DNA of 64,000 nucleotides. It comes from Stenotrophomonas sp. SAM-B. Lineage in GTDB: Bacteria; Pseudomonadota; Gammaproteobacteria; Xanthomonadales; Xanthomonadaceae. The stretch lies in the NCBI RefSeq assembly GCF_013387485.1, contig NZ_JABBXB010000005.1, positions 186,001 through 250,000 on the forward strand, read 5' to 3'. Made by a program: the position numbers and the translations under genes. The notes below the pieces were generated by a model that saw only the letters and a list, made by a program, of their open reading frames with translations, was not told where the DNA came from and made no database searches. Positions 4,629-13,142 of the stretch are shown one piece after another (positions within the stretch are counted from its first letter, which is position 1; each line of letters begins with the position of its first letter).

Positions 4629-5633
4629 TCAGGGGGCCAGCACCCGGTTCGCGCAGTCCGCCCCACTGACGAAGTCGGCCAGGTTGCCCAGCGTGATCTC
4701 CGAGATCTCCTGCAGCGCCTCCACCGTGAAGAAGCCCTGGTGCCCGGTCACCAGCACATTGGGGAAGGTCATCAGGCGCTGGAACGCATCATCGTCGATG
4801 ATCTCGCCGGACCAGTCCTGGAAGAACAGCCCGCTCTCCTGCTCGTAGACGTCGATGGCCAGGTGCCCCAGGCGGCGGGACTTCAGCGCGCGGATCACCG
4901 CATGGGTATCCACCAGCCCACCCCGCGAGGTATTGACCAGCATCGCCCCGGGTTTCATCCGGGCAAGCGAAGCATCATCGATCAGGTGCTGTGTCTGTGG
5001 CGTCAGCGGACAGTGCAGCGAGACCACGTCCGCGCGGGCGAGCAGTTCCTCCAGCGCGACCGACGCGCCGATGGCGGCGAACGCGGGCGACGGATACGGA
5101 TCGTGACCCAGTACGGTGCAGCCCATGCCCTTGAAGATGCGGGCGGTGGCCAGCCCGATCTTGCCGGTCCCCACGATGCCCACGGTTTTGCCGTGCAGGG
5201 TGCGGCCCAGCAGGCCATCGAGCATGAAGTTGCCCTCGCGCACCCGGTTGAAGGCGCGGTGGGTGTGCCGGTTGAGCGTCATCACCAGCGCCAGCGCATG
5301 TTCGGCTACGGCCTCGGGCGAATAGGCGGGCACGCGCGCTACGAACAGGCCCAGCTGGCCGGCGGCGGCCAGGTCGACGTTATTGAAGCCTGCACAACGC
5401 AGCAGCACCGCGCGCACGCCCAGTGCATGCAGCGCCTGCAGCACCGGCGCATCCAGCCGATCATTCACGAATACGCAGACCGCTTCGCAGTCCTGCGCCA
5501 GTGCCGCGGTATGTACCTCCAGCGCGGCGTCGAAATACAGAAACTCGAAGGACTGCCCTGCCCCGCGGCGTTGATTGGCTTCCTCGAGAAAGCGCTGGTC
5601 ATACGGGCGGGCGCTGAATACTGCGATCTTCAT
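4629..5633 (-). CDS. ldhA: D-2-hydroxyacid dehydrogenase, fermentative D-lactate dehydrogenase type
   Basis: 334 residues, like E. coli LdhA (329). It reduces pyruvate to D-lactate with NADH. The NAD-binding Rossmann fold is marked by G-T-G-K-I-G near residue 153. The catalytic Arg is in N-T-S-R-G-G, the Glu in D-V-Y-E-Q-E, and the His in T-G-H-Q-G-F-F-T, the layout of the D-lactate/2-hydroxyacid dehydrogenase family. The F-x-A-R-x-Y-D start matches LdhA. The ATG at 5633 is chosen because the upstream in-frame extension has no family similarity and overlaps the divergent gene. Other D-2-hydroxyacids are possible substrates, but the lactate enzyme is the closest subfamily. Confidence 0.88.
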   Translation of the reverse strand: MKIAVFSARPYDQRFLEEANQRRGAGQSFEFLYFDAALEVHTAALAQDCEAVCVFVNDRLDAPVLQALHALGVRAVLLRCAGFNNVDLAAAGQLGLFVARVPAYSPEAVAEHALALVMTLNRHTHRAFNRVREGNFMLDGLLGRTLHGKTVGIVGTGKIGLATARIFKGMGCTVLGHDPYPSPAFAAIGASVALEELLARADVVSLHCPLTPQTQHLIDDASLARMKPGAMLVNTSRGGLVDTHAVIRALKSRRLGHLAIDVYEQESGLFFQDWSGEIIDDDAFQRLMTFPNVLVTGHQGFFTVEALQEISEITLGNLADFVSGADCANRVLAP

Positions 5634-5703
5634 GAGGCGGATTCCCGGGAGTTCGAGCATGACGATACCGCAGTACACTCCGGCCAACTGCCTGGAGACC
5701 GCC

Positions 5704-6036
5704 GTGTCCCTGACTGCCCGCCTGCTCCGCTGGACCGCCACGCCGATGGGCCGGCGCGCCCTGTTCGTGCTTACTGCCGCGATCGTGACCCTGATGGCCT
5801 GCAACCCACTGCTGGTGCCACTGCTGCCCGTGGTGGATGCGCTGGGGCTGGATGTCCTGCTCCTGCTGATCGGTGCGCAGGCGATGGCGCTGTTGCCGTG
5901 GGTGCGGCTGCATGCCAGCCGTATCGCCCGCGTCGCCGCCCGTTTACTGCTTGGTGCGCTCGCAGGTTTCATCGGCGGCTATCTGCGGCAACTGGTCTTC
6001 GGCAATGGCGCGCGTTGGACCCGCACGCGCGCGTGA
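5704..6036 (+). CDS. Small membrane protein of unknown function
   Basis: 110 residues from a GTG at 5704, chosen because GGAG lies 6 bases before it and a plausible -10 box (TACACT, 5674-5679) lies just upstream; an earlier in-frame ATG at 5659 would sit in that promoter. Two strongly hydrophobic segments span about residues 17-38 and 41-58, and a third Ala/Gly-rich one 70-86. The C-terminus is basic. I recognise no family. It is divergent from ldhA and 35 bases upstream of the RsbQ-like gene, so it could share a transcript with it. Confidence 0.6.
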   Translation: MSLTARLLRWTATPMGRRALFVLTAAIVTLMACNPLLVPLLPVVDALGLDVLLLLIGAQAMALLPWVRLHASRIARVAARLLLGALAGFIGGYLRQLVFGNGARWTRTRA

Positions 6037-6071
6037 CCTAGTATTCGGCACTTGCCGGACGCCATGGGTGG

Positions 6072-6878
6072 ATGTGCGTGGAGAGTTTTGAGCGGTTCAA
6101 CGGGCGCCGGAGTGGCGAAGGCAAGACAGTCGCGATCCTGTCACACGGTTTTGGTACCGATCAGACGGCATGGAACGCACTGCGCCCTTGGTTTGAAGCA
6201 CGCTTTGATGTGATCTCCTTCGATCTTGCCGGCTGCGGTCCGCAAGGTGCGCAGACATACGATTTCGAACGACACGGCTCGCTGTTCGGGTATGCCGACG
6301 ATCTGATCGAGATCCTCGACGAACTGGACGTGCGTGAGTGCACCTACATCGGCCACTCCATGAGTGGCATGATCGGCGCGGCCGCTGCCGTGGCGCGGCC
6401 GGACCTGTTCGAGCGCCTGGTCATCATCGGTGCATCGCCGCGCTATCTCGACGATGACGGGTACACCGGCGGCTTCAGGCCGCAGGACCTGGACCAGTTG
6501 TTCGACAGCATGCGCGCCAACTACCAGGCCTGGATCGCCGGCTTCGCCCCGATGGTCGTCGGCGTGGAAGACAGCGCGGTCGTCGCCGATTTCTCCAATA
6601 CCCTGTTCCAGATGCGCCCGGATATCGCACTCAATACCTCGCGCACGATTTTCACCTCCGATCTGCGCAGCCTGGCCGCGCGGGTCTCAAGGCCGGTCCA
6701 CCTCATCCAGACCGCACACGACGTGGCGGTACCGGTCGCGGTCGGCCACTGGCTCGCCAACGCGATCGATGGCGCCACTCTGGATGTGATCGATGCCTCG
6801 GGTCATCTTCCGCACATGACCGCGCCCGATGACGTCATGCGCATCCTCGAACAGCGACTGGCAGGCACCGCGTTGTGA
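6072..6878 (+). CDS. RsbQ-like alpha/beta hydrolase (KAI2/D14-type fold), probable signalling partner of the downstream GGDEF protein
   Basis: 268 residues, the same length as Bacillus RsbQ, and it aligns with remembered RsbQ over its whole length (H-G-F-G-T-D-Q-x-x-W-N near the start, G-G-F and N-Y-x-x-W in the lid). The catalytic triad is intact: Ser96 in G-H-S-M-S-G, Asp217, and His245 in S-G-H-L-P-H-M. In Bacillus, RsbQ acts with the PAS phosphatase RsbP to sense energy stress; plant homologues are karrikin and strigolactone receptors. Its stop overlaps the next start (GTGA), so the two are co-translated. The inferred role is to make or hydrolyse a small ligand for the PAS/GAF part of the cyclase. 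The ligand is unknown. Confidence 0.85.
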   Translation: MCVESFERFNGRRSGEGKTVAILSHGFGTDQTAWNALRPWFEARFDVISFDLAGCGPQGAQTYDFERHGSLFGYADDLIEILDELDVRECTYIGHSMSGMIGAAAAVARPDLFERLVIIGASPRYLDDDGYTGGFRPQDLDQLFDSMRANYQAWIAGFAPMVVGVEDSAVVADFSNTLFQMRPDIALNTSRTIFTSDLRSLAARVSRPVHLIQTAHDVAVPVAVGHWLANAIDGATLDVIDASGHLPHMTAPDDVMRILEQRLAGTAL

Positions 6879-8209
6879 CGACGTCCGACAGTGACGCCCT
6901 GGCCGCGCTGTGTCAGTTCGCCCGCCTCGCCTCCCACGCCGACCTGGTGATGGCAGTGGAAGTGGACGCCAACGGCAGGGCGACGTGGGCGGTCGCGGCC
7001 CCGGCGCTGCCCTCGTCGAGCTTCAACCTGTCGCGCAGCGGTCTTCTCGAACACACCTGGAGCGGTGAAGCCGTCGACGCAACGGGGTTCCGGCTGCCGA
7101 CGGCGATCATCCATGCACTGGAAGGCCTCCCCACCCACCTGCTCTACGTGCCGGCCTCGTCGCACGGAGCGCCGCTGAGTGGCCTGCTGCTGCTGTGGCG
7201 AAGCGCGCCTGCCCCTGCAGCGCTGACGGCGCAGGTGCCGCTGCTGGCGACGAGCGTGGCCCGCCTGCTGTCCGCACGGCGGGAGGCCGCACGCGGCGCG
7301 ATCGTCCGCAATCAATTCCTCGATCTGTTTGAAAGCGTGCCGGCGGGCATCGTCCTGATCGATGGCGATGGCGTGGGCGCTGCCGTCAACGAGCACGCTG
7401 CGGAGCTGCTGGGGTGCGCGGCAGGCAATCACCGCGCGGCGGACCTCGCCGGCCCGATGCGCGCCCTGCGCCAACGCTGCGACAACCATGCCGAGCTGGA
7501 GCTGGCCTACAGCGCCCAGATGAACAACGATCAGTTCGCCGCGAAGCAGAACTGGACGCTGGGAGAACGGACCTTCGAAGTGGATACCCATCCGGTACGC
7601 GGCAACGGCGCCCATGGGCGCATCTGGCTGTTCACCGACGTCACCGCCGATCTGCTGATGGCCGCCGAACTGCGCCGCCTCGCCTCCTCCGATCCCTTGA
7701 CCGGCGTGCCCAATCGCCGTCATTTCGAGGAATCCTCTGCGCAGATCATCGCCGCCCGTGAAGCGAATGGCCGTGCGGTCGCGGTGCTGATGGTGGACGT
7801 GGATCACTTCAAGAAGATCAACGACACCTACGGCCATCCGGTCGGCGATGAAGTCCTCAAAGTGGTCGCCAGGCGTTGCCGGGATGCGCTGCGGGAACGC
7901 GATCTGTTCGCCCGCTTCGGGGGCGAGGAATTCATCGCCCTGCTGGCCGCCTCCACCCTGGATGAGATTCCCGCAGCCGCCGAGCGACTGCGCAGCGCGG
8001 TCGCCGCCGAACCCATCCTGGTGGGCGGCGAACGTATCGCCGTCTCCGTCAGCGTCGGCGGCGCGATCGGCGAGGCGCTTCCGGGCGGCGACCAGAAACT
8101 GCTGGAGGCGCTGATCTCCCGCGCGGACGAGGCGCTGTATGACGCCAAGACCAGCGGGCGGAACCGGGTCCGGATGGCGGCCCTCCAGCCCGACCTGATC
8201 GCCCCCTGA
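6875..8209 (+). CDS. GAF-like/PAS/GGDEF diguanylate cyclase coupled to RsbQ-like hydrolase
   Basis: 444 residues with no membrane segment, so cytoplasmic. An N-terminal GAF-like region (about 5-135) is followed by a PAS-like domain (about 145-260) and a GGDEF domain (268-440). The cyclase domain opens with D-P-L-T-G-V-P-N-R-R and has an intact active site G-G-E-E-F at 349-353. The inhibitory site R-x-x-D is at 340-343, five residues before it. It should make c-di-GMP from GTP and be product-inhibited. Start is GTG, overlapping the hydrolase stop by four bases. The layout mirrors RsbQ-RsbP, with the PP2C phosphatase of RsbP replaced by a cyclase. Confidence 0.9.
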   Translation: MTTSDSDALAALCQFARLASHADLVMAVEVDANGRATWAVAAPALPSSSFNLSRSGLLEHTWSGEAVDATGFRLPTAIIHALEGLPTHLLYVPASSHGAPLSGLLLLWRSAPAPAALTAQVPLLATSVARLLSARREAARGAIVRNQFLDLFESVPAGIVLIDGDGVGAAVNEHAAELLGCAAGNHRAADLAGPMRALRQRCDNHAELELAYSAQMNNDQFAAKQNWTLGERTFEVDTHPVRGNGAHGRIWLFTDVTADLLMAAELRRLASSDPLTGVPNRRHFEESSAQIIAAREANGRAVAVLMVDVDHFKKINDTYGHPVGDEVLKVVARRCRDALRERDLFARFGGEEFIALLAASTLDEIPAAAERLRSAVAAEPILVGGERIAVSVSVGGAIGEALPGGDQKLLEALISRADEALYDAKTSGRNRVRMAALQPDLIAP

Positions 8210-8225
8210 GGCGAGCGGGCGGCAC

Positions 8226-8276
8226 TTGTCCGGGCCAGCCTAACACTGTTAGATTCGCCGCCTAACATCGTTAGGC
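8226..8276 (+). promoter_or_regulatory. Promoter with two palindromic operators for the TetR/RND operon
   Basis: Two related dyads share the half-site CCTAAC: CTAACA-C-TGTTAG (8240-8252) and GCCTAAC-ATC-GTTAGGC (8260-8276). Their centres are 22 bp apart, about two helical turns. A possible promoter, TTGTCC (8226-8231), 17 bp, TTAGAT (8249-8254), overlaps the first dyad. The site sits directly before the TetR gene, as expected for autoregulation. Confidence 0.75.
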
Positions 8277-8286
8277 AGGGCCAGCA

Positions 8287-8919
8287 GTGCGTCAACCCAT
8301 CGCGCGGGAAAACATCGTCGAGGCGGCCTTCCGGATCCTCGACGAGGCCGGCCTGGAGGGCATCACGCTGCGCAAAGTGGCCTGCTCGCTGGGCATCCGC
8401 GCGCCGTCGCTGTACTGGCACTTCAAGAGCAAGCAGGCGCTGATCGATGCCATGGCCGACGCCATGATCTGCGACGTCGCCCGTGACATTCCCGTCGGCC
8501 AGCCATGGCGGCAGACCCTGCTGCAGATCGGGCGCGAGTTCCGCCTGGCATTCAAGGCACGCCGCGATGGTGCACGGGTCTATGCCGGCACCTTCCTGGC
8601 CACCGAAAACGTGCTGCGGGTGGGTGAGGCGAGCATCGCCGCGCTGATCGGCGCGGGCGCCTCGGCACGCTTCGCCGCGACCACCTCGATGGACCTGGTG
8701 TATTACACGATGGGCTTCGTCATCGAGGAGCAGTCCTGGCCCGGCGACGGCAGCATGGAGGCGCTGGGCGAGGCGTTCATGGCCCTGGCCGAAGCGCGCT
8801 TCCCCCATTGCTGGCAGGCCCGTGATGTGTGGAGCGAGGTCGATTTCGACGCCCGCTTCGAGCAGGGGCTCGGCCTGATGCTGGATGGCATCGCCCTGCG
8901 CCTGTCCCGCGAATCCTGA
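8287..8919 (+). CDS. TetR-family transcriptional regulator of the RND efflux operon
   Basis: 210 residues. The N-terminal helix-turn-helix is clear at about 25-48 (I-T-L-R-K-V-A, then P-S-L-Y-W-H-F-K-S-K). The C-terminal ligand domain resembles the TetR(A) class. Start is GTG at 8287, the first possible start after the operator pair. It is co-directional with, and 48 bases upstream of, the pump genes, so it probably represses its own operon until an efflux substrate binds. The inducer cannot be read from the sequence. Confidence 0.9.
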   Translation: MRQPIARENIVEAAFRILDEAGLEGITLRKVACSLGIRAPSLYWHFKSKQALIDAMADAMICDVARDIPVGQPWRQTLLQIGREFRLAFKARRDGARVYAGTFLATENVLRVGEASIAALIGAGASARFAATTSMDLVYYTMGFVIEEQSWPGDGSMEALGEAFMALAEARFPHCWQARDVWSEVDFDARFEQGLGLMLDGIALRLSRES

Positions 8920-8967
8920 TTCCCCCACTCCTTTTTCTCCCGCTGTTCCGACCCGGAAAGCCCCTCA

Positions 8968-10068
8968 ATGCGTGCACCCTCCTTCCGCAGTATTTCCCTG
9001 ATCCTGGTCGCCGCGCTGCTGTCCGCGTGTGGCGGCAAGGACGACAAGGCCTCGGCCGACGCCACGGCCGCCAGTTCGGCGCTGCCGGTCTCGCTGGCGC
9101 CTGCACAGCAGCAGACCATGGCGCGCACGGTGCTGGTCTCCGGGCCGGTGACCGCCTACGAGGAAATGCAGCTGGGCGTGGAGATCAGCGGCCAGCGGGT
9201 GACCGCGCTGCTGGTGGACGTGGGCCAATGGGTCAAGCAGGGCCAGGTGCTGCTGCAGGTGGACCATCGCACCCTGGACAGCGAGCTGGCGCAGGCCGAC
9301 GCCTCGCTGCGGCAGGCGCAGGCCTCGCAGGAACTGGCGCGGATGAACTACGAGCGCAGCGCCAAGCTGGCCGCCCAGCAGCTGATCAGCGAAAGCAGCC
9401 TGGATGAACTGCGCGCCTCGCGCATCAATGCCGAAGCGCAGACCTCCACCGCACGTGCCGCGCGCGACGCCGCCAAGCTGCGCCGCGATTTCGCCGATCT
9501 GCGCGCACCGGCCGACGGCCTGATCTCCAAGCGCCTGGTGCAGCCGGGCCAGGTGGTCTCCGCCGGAACCGAGCTGCTGCGCCTGATCCGCGATGGTCGC
9601 CTGGAGTGGCGCGCGGAGTTGCCGGAGAACCAGCTGGCCGATGTGGCGGTAGGCAACACCGTGGAGCTGCCGTATGCCGGCCAGGTGGTCAGCGGCCGCA
9701 TCCGCGCGGTCACCCCGGGTGTCGATGGGCAGACCCGCACCGGCACGATCTACGCCGATCTGCCCACGCCCGGCCCGCTCAAGCAGGGCATCTACGTGGA
9801 TGGCCGCATCGTCACCGGCGACGGCCCGGTGCTGACCATCCCGACCGCGGCGATCGTGCAGCGCGATGGCCACAACTACGTGTTCACCGTGAACGACAAG
9901 CAGCAGGCCACCCGCCACCGGGTCAGCACCGGCCAGGCCGTGCAGGGCCGCACCGCGATCCTTGAAGGTCTGAAGGCCGGTGACCAGGTCGTGGTGGATG
10001 GTTCCGGCTTCCTCGGTGAGGGCGACCGCGTGCGCGTAGTGGCCGCGACCAAGGCCGCCGCACGATGA
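8968..10068 (+). CDS. RND efflux pump periplasmic adaptor (membrane fusion lipoprotein)
   Basis: 366 residues. A signal peptide ends in the lipobox L-S-A-C (Cys21), so the protein is anchored to the inner membrane and spans the periplasm. A biotinyl-lipoyl-like domain and an Ala/Gln-rich alpha-helical hairpin (about 95-165) are followed by a beta-barrel and the membrane-proximal domain, the normal order for RND adaptors. The stop overlaps the permease start by ATGA. No outer-membrane channel gene is present, so a TolC-like protein encoded elsewhere is likely. It could match one of the Sme pumps of S. maltophilia, but I cannot say which. Confidence 0.92.
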   Translation: MRAPSFRSISLILVAALLSACGGKDDKASADATAASSALPVSLAPAQQQTMARTVLVSGPVTAYEEMQLGVEISGQRVTALLVDVGQWVKQGQVLLQVDHRTLDSELAQADASLRQAQASQELARMNYERSAKLAAQQLISESSLDELRASRINAEAQTSTARAARDAAKLRRDFADLRAPADGLISKRLVQPGQVVSAGTELLRLIRDGRLEWRAELPENQLADVAVGNTVELPYAGQVVSGRIRAVTPGVDGQTRTGTIYADLPTPGPLKQGIYVDGRIVTGDGPVLTIPTAAIVQRDGHNYVFTVNDKQQATRHRVSTGQAVQGRTAILEGLKAGDQVVVDGSGFLGEGDRVRVVAATKAAAR

Positions 10069-13000
10069 ACATTTCTGCCTGGGCGATCAAACGCCCGTTG
10101 CCTGCGCTGCTGATCTTCTTCGTGCTGTGCGTGGCCGGTCTGTGGGGCTTCCATCAGCTGCCGGTGGCGCGCTTCCCGGACATCGCCTTCCCGATGACCA
10201 CGGTGACCGTCACCCAGCCCGGCGCCTCGCCGAGCCAGCTGGAAGCCGAAGTGACCCGCAAGGTCGAGGACTCGGTGGCGACGGTCAACAACGTCAAGCG
10301 CGTGATGTCCTCGGTCAGCGAAGGCGTCAGCACCACCACCATCGAATTCCAGCTGGAGGCCGACCTGGCCACCGCACTGGATGACACCCGTGATGCCGTT
10401 ACGCGCATCCGCACCGACCTGCCGCAGGACATCCAGGAGCCGGTGATCTCCAAGGTCGATATCGGCGGCTCGCTGATGACCTATGCGCTGGTCGCCCCGC
10501 ACATGACCACCGATGAGGCCAGCTGGTTCGTCGACCGCGACATCTCGCGTGCGATGTACGGCGTGCCCGGTGTCGCGCGCGTCACCCGCGTGGGCGGCGT
10601 GCAGCGCCAGGTGCGGGTGGATCTGGATCCCAACGCGCTGATCGCGATGGGCATCACCGCCGGCGATGTATCGCAGCAGCTGGCCCGCATCCAGGTGGAG
10701 CGCGCCGGCGGCAAGACCGAGGTCGAGGGCGCGCAGCAGACCATCCGCACGCTGGGCACCGTCGGTGACGCACAGGCGCTGCGCGACTACTCCATTGCCC
10801 TGCCGGACGGGCGCGCGGTGCGGCTGTCCACGCTGGCCACGGTCACCGACGGCGCCGCCGACCCGACCGAAGCGGCCCTGCTGGACGGCAAGGGCGTGGT
10901 GGCCTTCTCGATGTCGCGCACCCGCGGCTCCAGCGAGGTCAAGGTCGAAGCCGGCGTGCATGACGCGCTGGACAAGATCAAGGCCGAGCATCCGGGCATC
11001 GACTTCCGCCTGGTCACCACGGCGATCGATGAGACGCACCGCTCCTACGATTCCTCGATGACCATGCTCTGGGAAGGCGCGCTGCTGGCGTTGCTGGTGG
11101 TGTGGCTGTTCCTGCGCGACTGGCGGGCGACGTGGGTGTCCGCGCTGGCGCTGCCGCTGTCGATCATCCCGACGTTCGCGGTGATGTACTTCTTCGGCTT
11201 CACCCTCAACATCATCACGCTGCTTGCGCTGTCCGTGGTGGTGGGCATCCTGGTGGACGATGCGATCGTGGAGATCGAGAACATCGTGCGCCACCTGCGC
11301 ATGGGCAAGCCACCGCTGGAAGCCGCGCGCGAGGCGGCCGGCGAGATCGGCAATGCGGTGATCGCCACCTCGCTCACCTTGGCCGCCGTATTCGTGCCGG
11401 TGGCCTTCATGCCCGGCATCGCCGGCAAGTTCTTCCGCGAGTTCGGCTGGACTGCCGCGACCGCCGTGCTGTTCTCGCTGCTGGTGGCGCGCCTGCTCAC
11501 GCCGATGATGGCCGCCTACCTGCTCAAGCCGCATGGCGAGGAGAAGCCGGAATCGAAGCTGATGACCTGGTACCTGGGCTGGGTGGACGCCGCGCTGCGC
11601 CATCGCGGCCGCACGCTCTGGCTGGCCACCGGGTTGTTCGTCGCGTCGCTGGCGCTGGTGCCGTTCATCCCGGCCACCTTCATCCCGCAGTCCGATCTGG
11701 GCCGCAGCAACCTCAACCTCGAACTGCCGCCGGGCACACGCCTGCAGGAAACCGTGGCCGTCGCGGAGCACGCGCGTGCGCTGCTCAAGGACATGCCCGA
11801 ACTCAAGCAGGTCTACACCGCGGTCGGCGCCGTGCTCGACCTGGGCGATCCCAGCGCAACCGGCGTCGGTGAGCCGCGCAAGGCCACCCTCGTGCTCGAC
11901 TGGGGCACCACCGACACGCGTGAGCGCGACCAGCGCGTGCTCGAGCGCGAGGCGCGCCAGCGCCTGGCCGACCTGCCCGGCGTGCGCGTCAGCTACGTCA
12001 GCTCCGAGCCGGGCAACCTGCTGCAACTGGTGCTCTCCGGTGACGACCCGCAGCGCCTGCAGGATGCCTCCACCGCGCTGGAGCGCGACCTGCGTGGCAT
12101 CCAGGGCCTGGGCAGCGTGACCTCCACTGCCTCGCTGCTGCGCCCGGAACTGCAGATCATGCCGAACCCCGCCCGCGCCGCGGACCTGGGCGTGGCGACC
12201 GCCGATATCGCCGAGGCCGCCCGCATCGCCACGGCGGGCGATTACGAACAGCGCCTGGCCAAGCTCAACCTGCCCGATCGGCAGGTACCGATCCGGGTCG
12301 GCTTTGCCGAAGCCACGCTGGCCAATCCGGGCCTGATCAGCCAGCTGCGCGTGCCCGGCCGCAATGGCCCGGTACCGTTGGCGGCCGTCGCCGACATCCA
12401 GCAGGGCAGCGGGCCGTCGCAGATTTCGCGCTACCAGCGCCAGCGCAACGTGACCCTCACCGCCGAACTCAACGGTCGCCCGCTGGGCGATGTGATGACC
12501 GAGGTACAGGCCCTGCCGAGCGTCAAGCAGCTGCCGCCGGGCGTGACCTTCCTCAACACCGGCGATGCAGAAGTGTTCGTCGAACTGTTCATCGGCTTCA
12601 TGCTGGCGATGGCGGCGGGGTTGATCTGCATCTACATGGTGCTGTTGCTGCTCTTCAACCACGCCCTGATGCCGATCACCATCCTTGCCGCGGTGCCGCT
12701 GTGCGCCGGCGGTGCGTTCGGCGCGTTGCTGATCACCCAGAACATGCTCTCGCTGCCGGCGCTGATCGGCCTGCTGATGCTGATCGGCATCGCCACCAAG
12801 AACTCCATCCTGCTGGTGGATTACGCGGTGATGGCCGAAGACGAACACGGCATGAGCCAGCACGATGCGCTGATCGATGCCTGCCGCAAGCGTGCGCAGC
12901 CGATCATCATGACCACCCTGGCGATGGGCGCGGGCATGATGCCGATCGCGCTTGGCTTTGCGGGTGACTCCAGCTTCCGTGCACCGATGGCGATCGCCGT

Positions 13001-13142
13001 GATCGGTGGCCTGATCACCTCGACGCTGCTCAGCCTGATCGTGATTCCGGCCGCTTTCACCGTGGTGGATGACGCGGGGGATTGGCTGTCGCGGAAGTTC
13101 CGGCGGCGGTCTTCGCATCCGGCTGTCGGCGGTGCGGAGTGA
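10065..13142 (+). CDS. RND efflux transporter, inner-membrane permease
   Basis: 1025 residues, the usual RND length, with 12 expected membrane helices in two halves separated by large periplasmic loops. The proton-relay acidic pair is in G-I-L-V-D-D-A-I-V (helix 4), and the partner lysine in A-T-K-N-S-I-L-L-V-D (helix 10). The N-terminus M-N-I-S-x-W-A-I-K-R-P is typical of this branch. It exports drugs or other toxic compounds using the proton gradient with the adaptor upstream. It ends shortly before a strong terminator. The substrate is not predictable; this branch is nearer to the MdtB/C-like and Sme pumps than to AcrB. Confidence 0.93.
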   Translation: MNISAWAIKRPLPALLIFFVLCVAGLWGFHQLPVARFPDIAFPMTTVTVTQPGASPSQLEAEVTRKVEDSVATVNNVKRVMSSVSEGVSTTTIEFQLEADLATALDDTRDAVTRIRTDLPQDIQEPVISKVDIGGSLMTYALVAPHMTTDEASWFVDRDISRAMYGVPGVARVTRVGGVQRQVRVDLDPNALIAMGITAGDVSQQLARIQVERAGGKTEVEGAQQTIRTLGTVGDAQALRDYSIALPDGRAVRLSTLATVTDGAADPTEAALLDGKGVVAFSMSRTRGSSEVKVEAGVHDALDKIKAEHPGIDFRLVTTAIDETHRSYDSSMTMLWEGALLALLVVWLFLRDWRATWVSALALPLSIIPTFAVMYFFGFTLNIITLLALSVVVGILVDDAIVEIENIVRHLRMGKPPLEAAREAAGEIGNAVIATSLTLAAVFVPVAFMPGIAGKFFREFGWTAATAVLFSLLVARLLTPMMAAYLLKPHGEEKPESKLMTWYLGWVDAALRHRGRTLWLATGLFVASLALVPFIPATFIPQSDLGRSNLNLELPPGTRLQETVAVAEHARALLKDMPELKQVYTAVGAVLDLGDPSATGVGEPRKATLVLDWGTTDTRERDQRVLEREARQRLADLPGVRVSYVSSEPGNLLQLVLSGDDPQRLQDASTALERDLRGIQGLGSVTSTASLLRPELQIMPNPARAADLGVATADIAEAARIATAGDYEQRLAKLNLPDRQVPIRVGFAEATLANPGLISQLRVPGRNGPVPLAAVADIQQGSGPSQISRYQRQRNVTLTAELNGRPLGDVMTEVQALPSVKQLPPGVTFLNTGDAEVFVELFIGFMLAMAAGLICIYMVLLLLFNHALMPITILAAVPLCAGGAFGALLITQNMLSLPALIGLLMLIGIATKNSILLVDYAVMAEDEHGMSQHDALIDACRKRAQPIIMTTLAMGAGMMPIALGFAGDSSFRAPMAIAVIGGLITSTLLSLIVIPAAFTVVDDAGDWLSRKFRRRSSHPAVGGAE

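What the first reader, a model, noticed from the sequence alone, without database searches (positions are those of the whole stretch)
6072..8209. RsbQ/KAI2-like hydrolase translationally coupled to a GAF/PAS/GGDEF cyclase
The hydrolase matches RsbQ in length and keeps the Ser/Asp/His triad (Ser96, Asp217, His245). Its stop overlaps the cyclase start by GTGA. In Bacillus, RsbQ works with a PAS protein that ends in a phosphatase; here the output is a cyclase with intact GGEEF and RxxD sites. This suggests a route by which a hydrolase-derived or hydrolase-bound small molecule controls c-di-GMP. The ligand and any physical contact are inference.
Basis: partly seen in the sequence, partly recalled or inferred. 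Interest (0 to 1): 0.7.

Follow-up and report, generated by a model that had tools for sequence, protein, structure and literature searches.

The report
Plant-hormone-receptor-like hydrolase paired with cyclase
A bacterial cousin of the plant receptors for strigolactone and karrikin hormones is encoded directly in front of, and overlapping, a signalling enzyme that should make c-di-GMP, and the same pairing recurs in distant bacteria, which suggests that this receptor family worked as a small-molecule sensor in bacteria before plants had it.

Summary
In detail: hydrolase 6072-6878 (Ser96/Asp217/His245) and diguanylate cyclase 6875-8209 (GGEEF, RERD) overlap by GTGA. An RsbQ hydrolase beside PAS-GGDEF is not new in itself (45 RsbQ/RsbP-PAS pairs, some with cyclases; PMC3183031), but this pair is not of that type. 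Its partner begins with a GAF-like domain and has a different PAS with a DIT-like end; an RsbP-PAS model does not match it, a GAF-PAS model scores 260 bits. None of 128 loci scores with both models, and in a tree of 103 of them no class crosses between two arms. Plant KAI2/D14 lie in the window's arm; placing them with RsbQ is rejected (p-AU 0.001). Several pocket residues are KAI2-like. GAF-PAS was seen only beside such hydrolases: the same 15 of 91 genus genomes have both; 24 of 24 hydrolase-bearing genomes hold one copy, at the pair. Best reading: a two-gene receptor-effector in which a KAI2-type hydrolase controls c-di-GMP through GAF-PAS. Ligand and contact are untested; a fused-chain AlphaFold model gave no confident interface (pTM 0.61).

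The parts
6072..6878 (+). KAI2-type alpha/beta hydrolase gene (268 aa)
6357..6359 (+). codon of catalytic Ser96
   Evidence: position; column identical in every row
6720..6722 (+). codon of catalytic Asp217
   Evidence: position; column identical in every row
6804..6806 (+). codon of catalytic His245
   Evidence: position; column identical in every row
6875..6878 (+). GTGA: start of the cyclase overlapping the stop of the hydrolase
   Evidence: the same 4-base overlap in 17 of 62 class-G pairs of the genome scan (starts chosen mechanically)
6875..8209 (+). GAF-PAS-GGDEF diguanylate cyclase gene (444 aa, GTG start)
6875..7300 (+). N-terminal GAF-like domain (about residues 1-142)
7313..7654 (+). 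PAS domain of the GAF-PAS class (about residues 147-260), ending in the DIT-like FTDVT
7685..8167 (+). GGDEF domain (residues 271-431)
7892..7903 (+). RERD, an RxxD inhibitory-type site five residues before GGEEF
   Evidence: read; meaning of the site recalled
7919..7933 (+). GGEEF active-site motif
   Evidence: read

Best explanation
A two-gene receptor-effector. The KAI2-type hydrolase is the small-molecule receptor (it may also turn the molecule over); its state is passed to the GAF-PAS half of the co-translated partner, which sets the activity of the GGDEF domain and so c-di-GMP. Shown: the genes, their coupling, intact catalytic motifs, conserved and (in the genomes searched) exclusive pairing, swappable outputs (GGDEF, GGDEF-EAL, histidine kinase), the two-arm phylogeny and several KAI2-like pocket residues. 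Inferred: binding of hydrolase to GAF-PAS, direction of control, and the ligand (a KAI2-ligand-like or butenolide-like molecule is the best guess).
For: Pairing: the GAF-PAS class lies downstream in 62 of 80 scanned loci, from Pseudomonadota, Cyanobacteriota, Myxococcota, Bacteroidota, Acidobacteriota and Campylobacterota. Exclusivity: GAF-PAS in 15 of 91 genus genomes, the same 15 that carry the 78-100% identical hydrolase (every first-look candidate was scored); 4 of 247 family genomes, the same 4 as the class-G hydrolase (at most 9 candidates per genome scored); 3 of 149 genomes of a Novosphingobium's family, all at pairs already seen (at most 16 scored); exactly one copy, at the known pair, in each of 24 hydrolase-bearing genomes (up to 100 candidates scored per genome). 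Outputs swap while hydrolase and GAF-PAS stay: by motif 22 GGDEF, 5 GGDEF-EAL, 28 with a kinase H-box, 7 cut or other, of 62; Pfam on 12 class-G partners agrees in kind, apart from L056, whose ORF is cut after the PAS. Pocket: F158, F174, I193 and A219 as in KAI2, against M/L158, L174, T193, I/L219 in the RsbQ arm; F27, Y125 and F194 are shared more widely (rice KAI2 pocket residues from passages of PMC11350264). For the sister system, contact of RsbQ with RsbP-PAS and need of the triad are published (PMC3183031), and a natural single-chain hydrolase-PAS-GGDEF protein occurs in the RsbQ arm (L155).
Against: No experiment links the two proteins. The fused-chain AlphaFold model has well-defined domains (mean pLDDT 93.9) but pTM 0.61, so no interface can be claimed; 73 of its 79 rows held only one of the two proteins and the linker was short. 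No hydrolase-GAF-PAS fusion showed in the 80 loci. Eight hydrolases on the class-G side of the tree have no such neighbour downstream: L051, L064, L068, L089, L094, L098, L099, L106. The ligand is unknown; G120 follows D14 and RsbQ, not KAI2, and M97, V162, S190 also differ from KAI2.
Confidence: 0.55

Rival explanations
1. The hydrolase is an enzyme first: it makes a product that the PAS (or GAF) pocket of the cyclase binds as signal or cofactor (Model 1 of Nadezhdin et al.). The cyclase, not the hydrolase, is then the sensor.
For: Triad conserved in every aligned row; triad needed in B. subtilis RsbQ (PMC3183031). PAS and GAF folds commonly bind ligands (recalled).
Against: The conserved hydrolase pocket matches receptors that turn over slowly (recalled for KAI2/D14); the invariant residues of the class-G GAF-PAS (N172, M195, W227, G248, W251) do not by themselves show a ligand pocket.
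Confidence: 0.25
2. It is an ordinary member of the published RsbQ-PAS module with a cyclase output.
For: Same gene order, hydrolase fold and output type (PMC3183031).
Against: The PAS is not N-terminal, an RsbP-PAS model gives no match at E up to 10, a DIT-like end is present, and the hydrolase falls outside the RsbQ arm.
Confidence: 0.05
3. The hydrolase is a catabolic or housekeeping esterase that shares an operon with the cyclase without functional contact.
For: No binding shown; weak similarity to many esterases and PcaD.
Against: One-to-one co-occurrence over several phyla with changing output domains; none of the 25 NCBIfam models shown comes near its cut-off (best 102.9 bits against 390).
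Confidence: 0.08

Closest known systems
RsbQ / RsbP-PAS bipartite module (Nadezhdin, Brody and Price 2011, PMC3183031)
   Same: alpha/beta hydrolase gene directly upstream of a PAS protein with swappable output, diguanylate cyclase among them
   Different: other hydrolase arm; partner has an N-terminal GAF-like domain and a different, DIT-ended PAS; RsbP-PAS model does not match
Plant KAI2 / D14 / DAD2 receptors
   Same: 45% and 49% identity to two natural chains, same arm of the tree, KAI2 states at Y125, F158, F174, I193, A219
   Different: bacterial; tied by gene order to GAF-PAS-GGDEF, not to MAX2 and SMXL (plant pathway recalled and from abstracts and passages)
GAF-PAS-GGDEF diguanylate cyclases in general
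   Same: GGEEF active site, RxxD site, sensor domains in front
   Different: GAF-PAS of this class was found only next to a KAI2-type hydrolase in the genomes searched

Membership tests
RsbQ/RsbP-PAS module (PMC3183031) | RsbQ-like hydrolase with Ser-Asp-His triad encoded directly upstream | tested here: met
   in the wide family sense only, since the hydrolase lies in the KAI2 arm
[quoted passage not shown]
   about 142 residues of GAF-like domain precede the PAS
RsbQ/RsbP-PAS module (PMC3183031) | PAS belongs to the RsbP-PAS sequence class | tested here: not met
   HMM of 19 RsbP-PAS partners gives no match to the window protein at E up to 10 (12-15 bits in some close relatives); GAF-PAS HMM 260 bits. 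The nine residues themselves were not mapped, as B. subtilis RsbP was not fetched
RsbQ/RsbP-PAS module (PMC3183031) | No DIT motif at the end of the PAS | tested here: not met
   FTDVT at the end of the PAS; F253 and D255 nearly invariant in 45 rows
RsbQ/RsbP-PAS module (PMC3183031) | Output is PPM phosphatase, histidine kinase or GGDEF | tested here: met
   GGDEF 148.5 bits
RsbQ/RsbP-PAS module (PMC3183031) | Coiled-coil of at least 21 residues between PAS and output (36 of 45 there) | tested here: inconclusive
   model ends in a helix at 257-271 before GGDEF; the longest helix (121-154) joins GAF to PAS; no coiled-coil program run
KAI2/D14 receptor family | Sequence falls with plant KAI2/D14 rather than RsbQ | tested here: met
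KAI2/D14 receptor family | Catalytic triad and hydrophobic pocket residues of KAI2 | tested here: met
   exceptions M97, G120, V162, S190
KAI2/D14 receptor family | Binds or hydrolyses butenolides such as karrikin, GR24 or YLG | not testable with these tools
   needs an assay
Diguanylate cyclase | GG[DE]EF motif in a complete GGDEF domain | tested here: met
Diguanylate cyclase | Makes c-di-GMP | not testable with these tools
   needs an assay

The most novel reading that the evidence does not exclude
The plant strigolactone/karrikin receptors descend from a bacterial hydrolase of this operon type, which was already a receptor wired to a GAF-PAS signalling protein; the present-day pairs in bacteria such as Stenotrophomonas rhizophila and Novosphingobium sp. 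Leaf2 still sense a KAI2-ligand-like molecule and answer with c-di-GMP.
Probability: 0.3. Interest if true: 0.87.

Novelty: new variant of a known kind. Interest (0 to 1): 0.62.

Why it matters
The endogenous ligand of plant KAI2 is unknown (abstract of PMC10504578), and so is what the receptor did before plants had it. A bacterial system with much of the same pocket, an enzymatic read-out (c-di-GMP) and simple genetics would make both questions testable. It also splits the RsbQ family into two arms with two different signalling partners, so results on RsbQ/RsbP cannot simply be carried over to the KAI2-like bacterial proteins.

Tried and rejected
Canonical RsbQ-RsbP membership: rejected on three defining features. 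Wide occurrence in the family Xanthomonadaceae: rejected (4 of 247 genomes, all one genus); a class scan at E 1e-60 rang only in the own genome (1 of 369). A three-gene unit with the small membrane ORF 5659-6036: not supported, since tblastn at 1e-5 found it in none of the 11 loci L036-L046 and only weakly, over 3 kb from the hydrolase, in L034. sigma-70 promoter and terminator scan of 5500-8600: nothing found. Search for a solved RsbP-PAS relative: three weak matches (an earlier try with wrong coordinates returned hydrolases). Fused-chain AlphaFold model as a test of contact: inconclusive. Rooting with four remote hydrolases of the own genome: three of four put the root between the two arms, but their branches are very long and the fourth fell inside the RsbQ arm. 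The first trees held 7ukb, which one search showed to be an ancestral reconstruction; the tree was redone with natural plant chains only. Whether plants are sister to the window's clade or to that clade plus a further Sphingomonas pair is not resolved (p-AU 0.106). The groups of the AU tests were named after I had seen the tree, which weakens their p-values. PMC5490202 (one passage) reports that RsbQ rows moved with the choice of root in a plant-centred tree. Wang et al. 2022 on the bacterial origin of KAI2 is known to me only as cited in PMC10504578 and PMC11655239 (passages); it was not read, so how much of the tree is already in print cannot be judged. Rows dropped before the trees: 25 of 128 as near-copies, then 36 of 109 as long-branched, partnerless or near-duplicate (the same).

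Full report
WHAT IS THERE. The window (64 kb of contig C5 of a 4.25 Mb genome) holds a 268-aa alpha/beta hydrolase gene at 6072-6878 and a 444-aa gene at 6875-8209 on the same strand, overlapping by GTGA. The hydrolase has Ser96, Asp217 and His245 (invariant columns). The second protein has a GGDEF domain (148.5 bits, residues 271-431) with GGEEF and, five residues before it, RERD; a PAS domain (residues 147-203 by PAS_8, up to 258 by PAS_4); and about 142 residues in front. Pfam does not call that front part GAF in the window protein, but a profile of 45 relatives matches 3p01_A over positions 7-150 (E 1e-4) and weakly matches bacteriophytochrome cyclases (E 0.09-0.23), 3 of 45 relatives match GAF_2, and the fold model (mean pLDDT 90.0, pTM 0.64) has phytochromes and tandem-GAF proteins among its Foldseek matches, with low TM-scores (0.25-0.39 by query length) over the two-domain chain. 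That the genus is Stenotrophomonas is inferred from the nearest named hydrolase, S. rhizophila, 96%.

WHICH HYDROLASE. By phmmer the closest solved chains are plant ones: 7ukb at 287 bits, natural plant chains from 272.5 bits down, B. subtilis RsbQ (1wom) at 175.8. 7ukb is an ancestral reconstruction (title), so I do not lean on it. The reverse holds for a hydrolase of the same taxonomic family next to an RsbP-PAS cyclase (L023): RsbQ 267.6 bits, best natural plant chain 156.8. The window's hydrolase is 45% and 49% identical to two natural plant chains (48% to 7ukb), but 34-38% identical to the five hydrolases from other genera of its family that were aligned.

WHAT LIES NEXT TO ITS RELATIVES. 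A scan of genome contigs with an alignment of four Stenotrophomonas, two natural plant and one ancestral plant sequence kept the best 80 of 122 confirmed loci. Its search patterns contain residues typical of this arm, so the sample favours it. I took the downstream gene of each locus and built two HMMs, one from 19 RsbP-PAS partners and one from 27 GAF-PAS partners. Of 128 loci analysed none scores over 45 bits with both. Of the 80 loci, 62 have the GAF-PAS class, 3 the RsbP-PAS class, 15 neither. Of the 15, L087 has an RsbP-PAS ORF that my partner choice missed and six are Hymenobacter hydrolases that fall with the RsbQ arm; the other eight are on the class-G side. The window's protein, not used to build the model, scores 260 bits with the GAF-PAS HMM and does not match the RsbP-PAS HMM at E up to 10. 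Outputs of the 62, by motif: GGDEF 22, GGDEF-EAL 5, histidine kinase H-box 28, other or cut 7. Pfam was run on 20 neighbours of all kinds, 12 of them class G. Seventeen of the 62 share the 4-base overlap and 58 of 62 start within 80 bases of the hydrolase stop in either direction, with start codons chosen mechanically.

HOW EXCLUSIVE IS THE PAIR. In 91 genomes of the genus GAF-PAS occurs in 15 and the hydrolase at E <= 1e-40 in 16: the same 15, plus G633, whose 35% identical hydrolase has an RsbP-PAS partner. In 247 family genomes the hydrolase search gives 14, of which 4 are paired with GAF-PAS and 10 with RsbP-PAS; GAF-PAS is found in the same 4 (at most 9 candidates scored per genome). In 149 genomes of the family of a Novosphingobium genome, 3 have GAF-PAS, all at pairs already seen (at most 16 candidates scored). 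In 24 genomes chosen because they hold such a hydrolase (24 of the 80 loci were given), each has exactly one GAF-PAS copy, at the coordinates of the known pair (up to 100 candidates scored). In 398 genomes of the phylum 20 have a hydrolase at E <= 1e-40; beyond the own genome there are 22 hydrolases, 19 with RsbP-PAS downstream and 3 without. One of these 3, L155, is a single 585-aa frame with hydrolase, PAS and GGDEF: a natural fusion, though in the RsbQ arm and not in this one. No class-G fusion showed in the 80 loci.

PHYLOGENY. In a quick tree of 103 bacterial hydrolases, 4 plant-type rows and 2 solved RsbQ-type chains, the RsbP-PAS rows (31) and the GAF-PAS rows (54) lie on opposite sides of one branch, partnerless rows on both. 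With 73 rows and a careful search that branch has support 100/99; plants lie with the window's clade and a Sphingomonas pair (100/99) and next to the window's clade (97/86). With natural plant chains only (75 rows) the plants form one group (99/92), the two sets keep 97/87 and 100/99, and forcing plants to the RsbQ side costs 35.6 log-likelihood units, p-AU 0.001 (34.4 units, p-AU 0.0002 with 7ukb). These groups were named after the tree was seen. The order of plants, the window's clade and the Sphingomonas pair is open (p-AU 0.106). The Stenotrophomonas sequences group with alphaproteobacterial ones, and the pair is in 15 of 91 genomes of the genus and in no other of 54 genera sampled in the family, which suggests transfer between Sphingomonadales and Stenotrophomonas. 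Of four relatives without the pair that I looked at, three keep the neighbouring dehydrogenase, but tblastn finds neither the membrane ORF nor the pair in the 4.5-4.8 kb fetched beside it; the fourth has no such dehydrogenase at E 1e-80.

POCKET. At positions named for rice KAI2 (passages of PMC11350264) the window has F27, Y125, F158, I193, F194, A219, as in KAI2; Y125, I193 and A219 are the KAI2 and not the D14 states. F174 is shared with plants too. In 33 RsbQ-arm rows the commonest states are M/L158, L174, T193, I/L219, while F27, F194 and mostly Y125 are shared by both arms. Differences from KAI2: M97, G120, V162, S190. The mapping is by alignment; no ligand was modelled.

CONTACT. As no complex prediction was offered, I used L037, where both genes share one reading frame, and read the stop between them as glycine to give one 538-residue chain with 79 alignment rows, 6 of them such fused chains. 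Domains were confident (mean pLDDT 93.9) but pTM was 0.61. This neither shows nor excludes an interface.

MECHANISM. In B. subtilis, RsbQ binds the PAS of RsbP, and triad and PAS residues are needed (PMC3183031, sections 5, 6 and 11 read). That paper leaves open whether the hydrolase delivers a product (Model 1) or is itself the receptor (Model 2). For the present pair I favour the receptor reading because several pocket residues are those of a receptor family and because the hydrolase and GAF-PAS are conserved while outputs change. This step is inference.

KNOWN OR NEW. Linkage of an RsbQ hydrolase to PAS-GGDEF is published (PMC3183031: 45 pairs; RsbP-PAS always most N-terminal; no DIT motif). 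Origin of plant KAI2 from bacterial RsbQ by gene transfer is stated in papers citing Wang et al. 2022 (passages), which I could not read. My full-text searches (RsbQ with GGDEF, diguanylate cyclase, GAF, strigolactone, or KAI2 plus PAS domain, horizontal gene transfer or Proteobacteria; strigolactone with diguanylate cyclase; karrikin with c-di-GMP) listed no paper whose title or shown start of abstract describes the GAF-PAS class; only 20 of 216 papers were listed, and the library holds openly licensed papers only. I therefore file it as a new variant of a known kind.

Noticed in passing
   Followed up: partly
L034 4804-6112 and L129: In S. rhizophila DE0483 the GGDEF domain of the partner is split over two frames; the unnamed G634 (L129) has a partner of the same shortened length (404 aa).
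   Followed up: no
L094, L106: Rubrivivax hydrolases on the KAI2 side of the tree (long branch) sit next to a dihydrouridine synthase gene with no sensor protein directly downstream.
   Followed up: no
L047: Thermosynechococcus MAG: the GAF-PAS-GGDEF partner is broken into two ORFs and the hydrolase has a very long branch.
   Followed up: no
L095 4922-5782 (-): Hymenobacter profundi has a second family hydrolase on the opposite strand just downstream of the first.
   Followed up: no
5659-6036 (+): Small hydrophobic protein ORF ending 35 bases before the hydrolase, divergent from a 2-hydroxyacid dehydrogenase (4629-5633, -); of 20 loci examined (L027-L046) found in the nine Stenotrophomonas ones only.
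   Followed up: partly
8287-13142 (+): TetR-family regulator followed by a periplasmic adaptor-like and an RND-type transporter-like gene, an apparent efflux operon, directly downstream of the pair (TetR by Pfam; the other two recognised from sequence only).
   Followed up: no
L163: The dehydrogenase homologue of G098 is reported with one in-frame TAG.
   Followed up: no
own genome G000: 30 GGDEF matches, 29 over the Pfam cut-off, so c-di-GMP signalling is dense and a single cyclase mutant may be masked.
   Followed up: no
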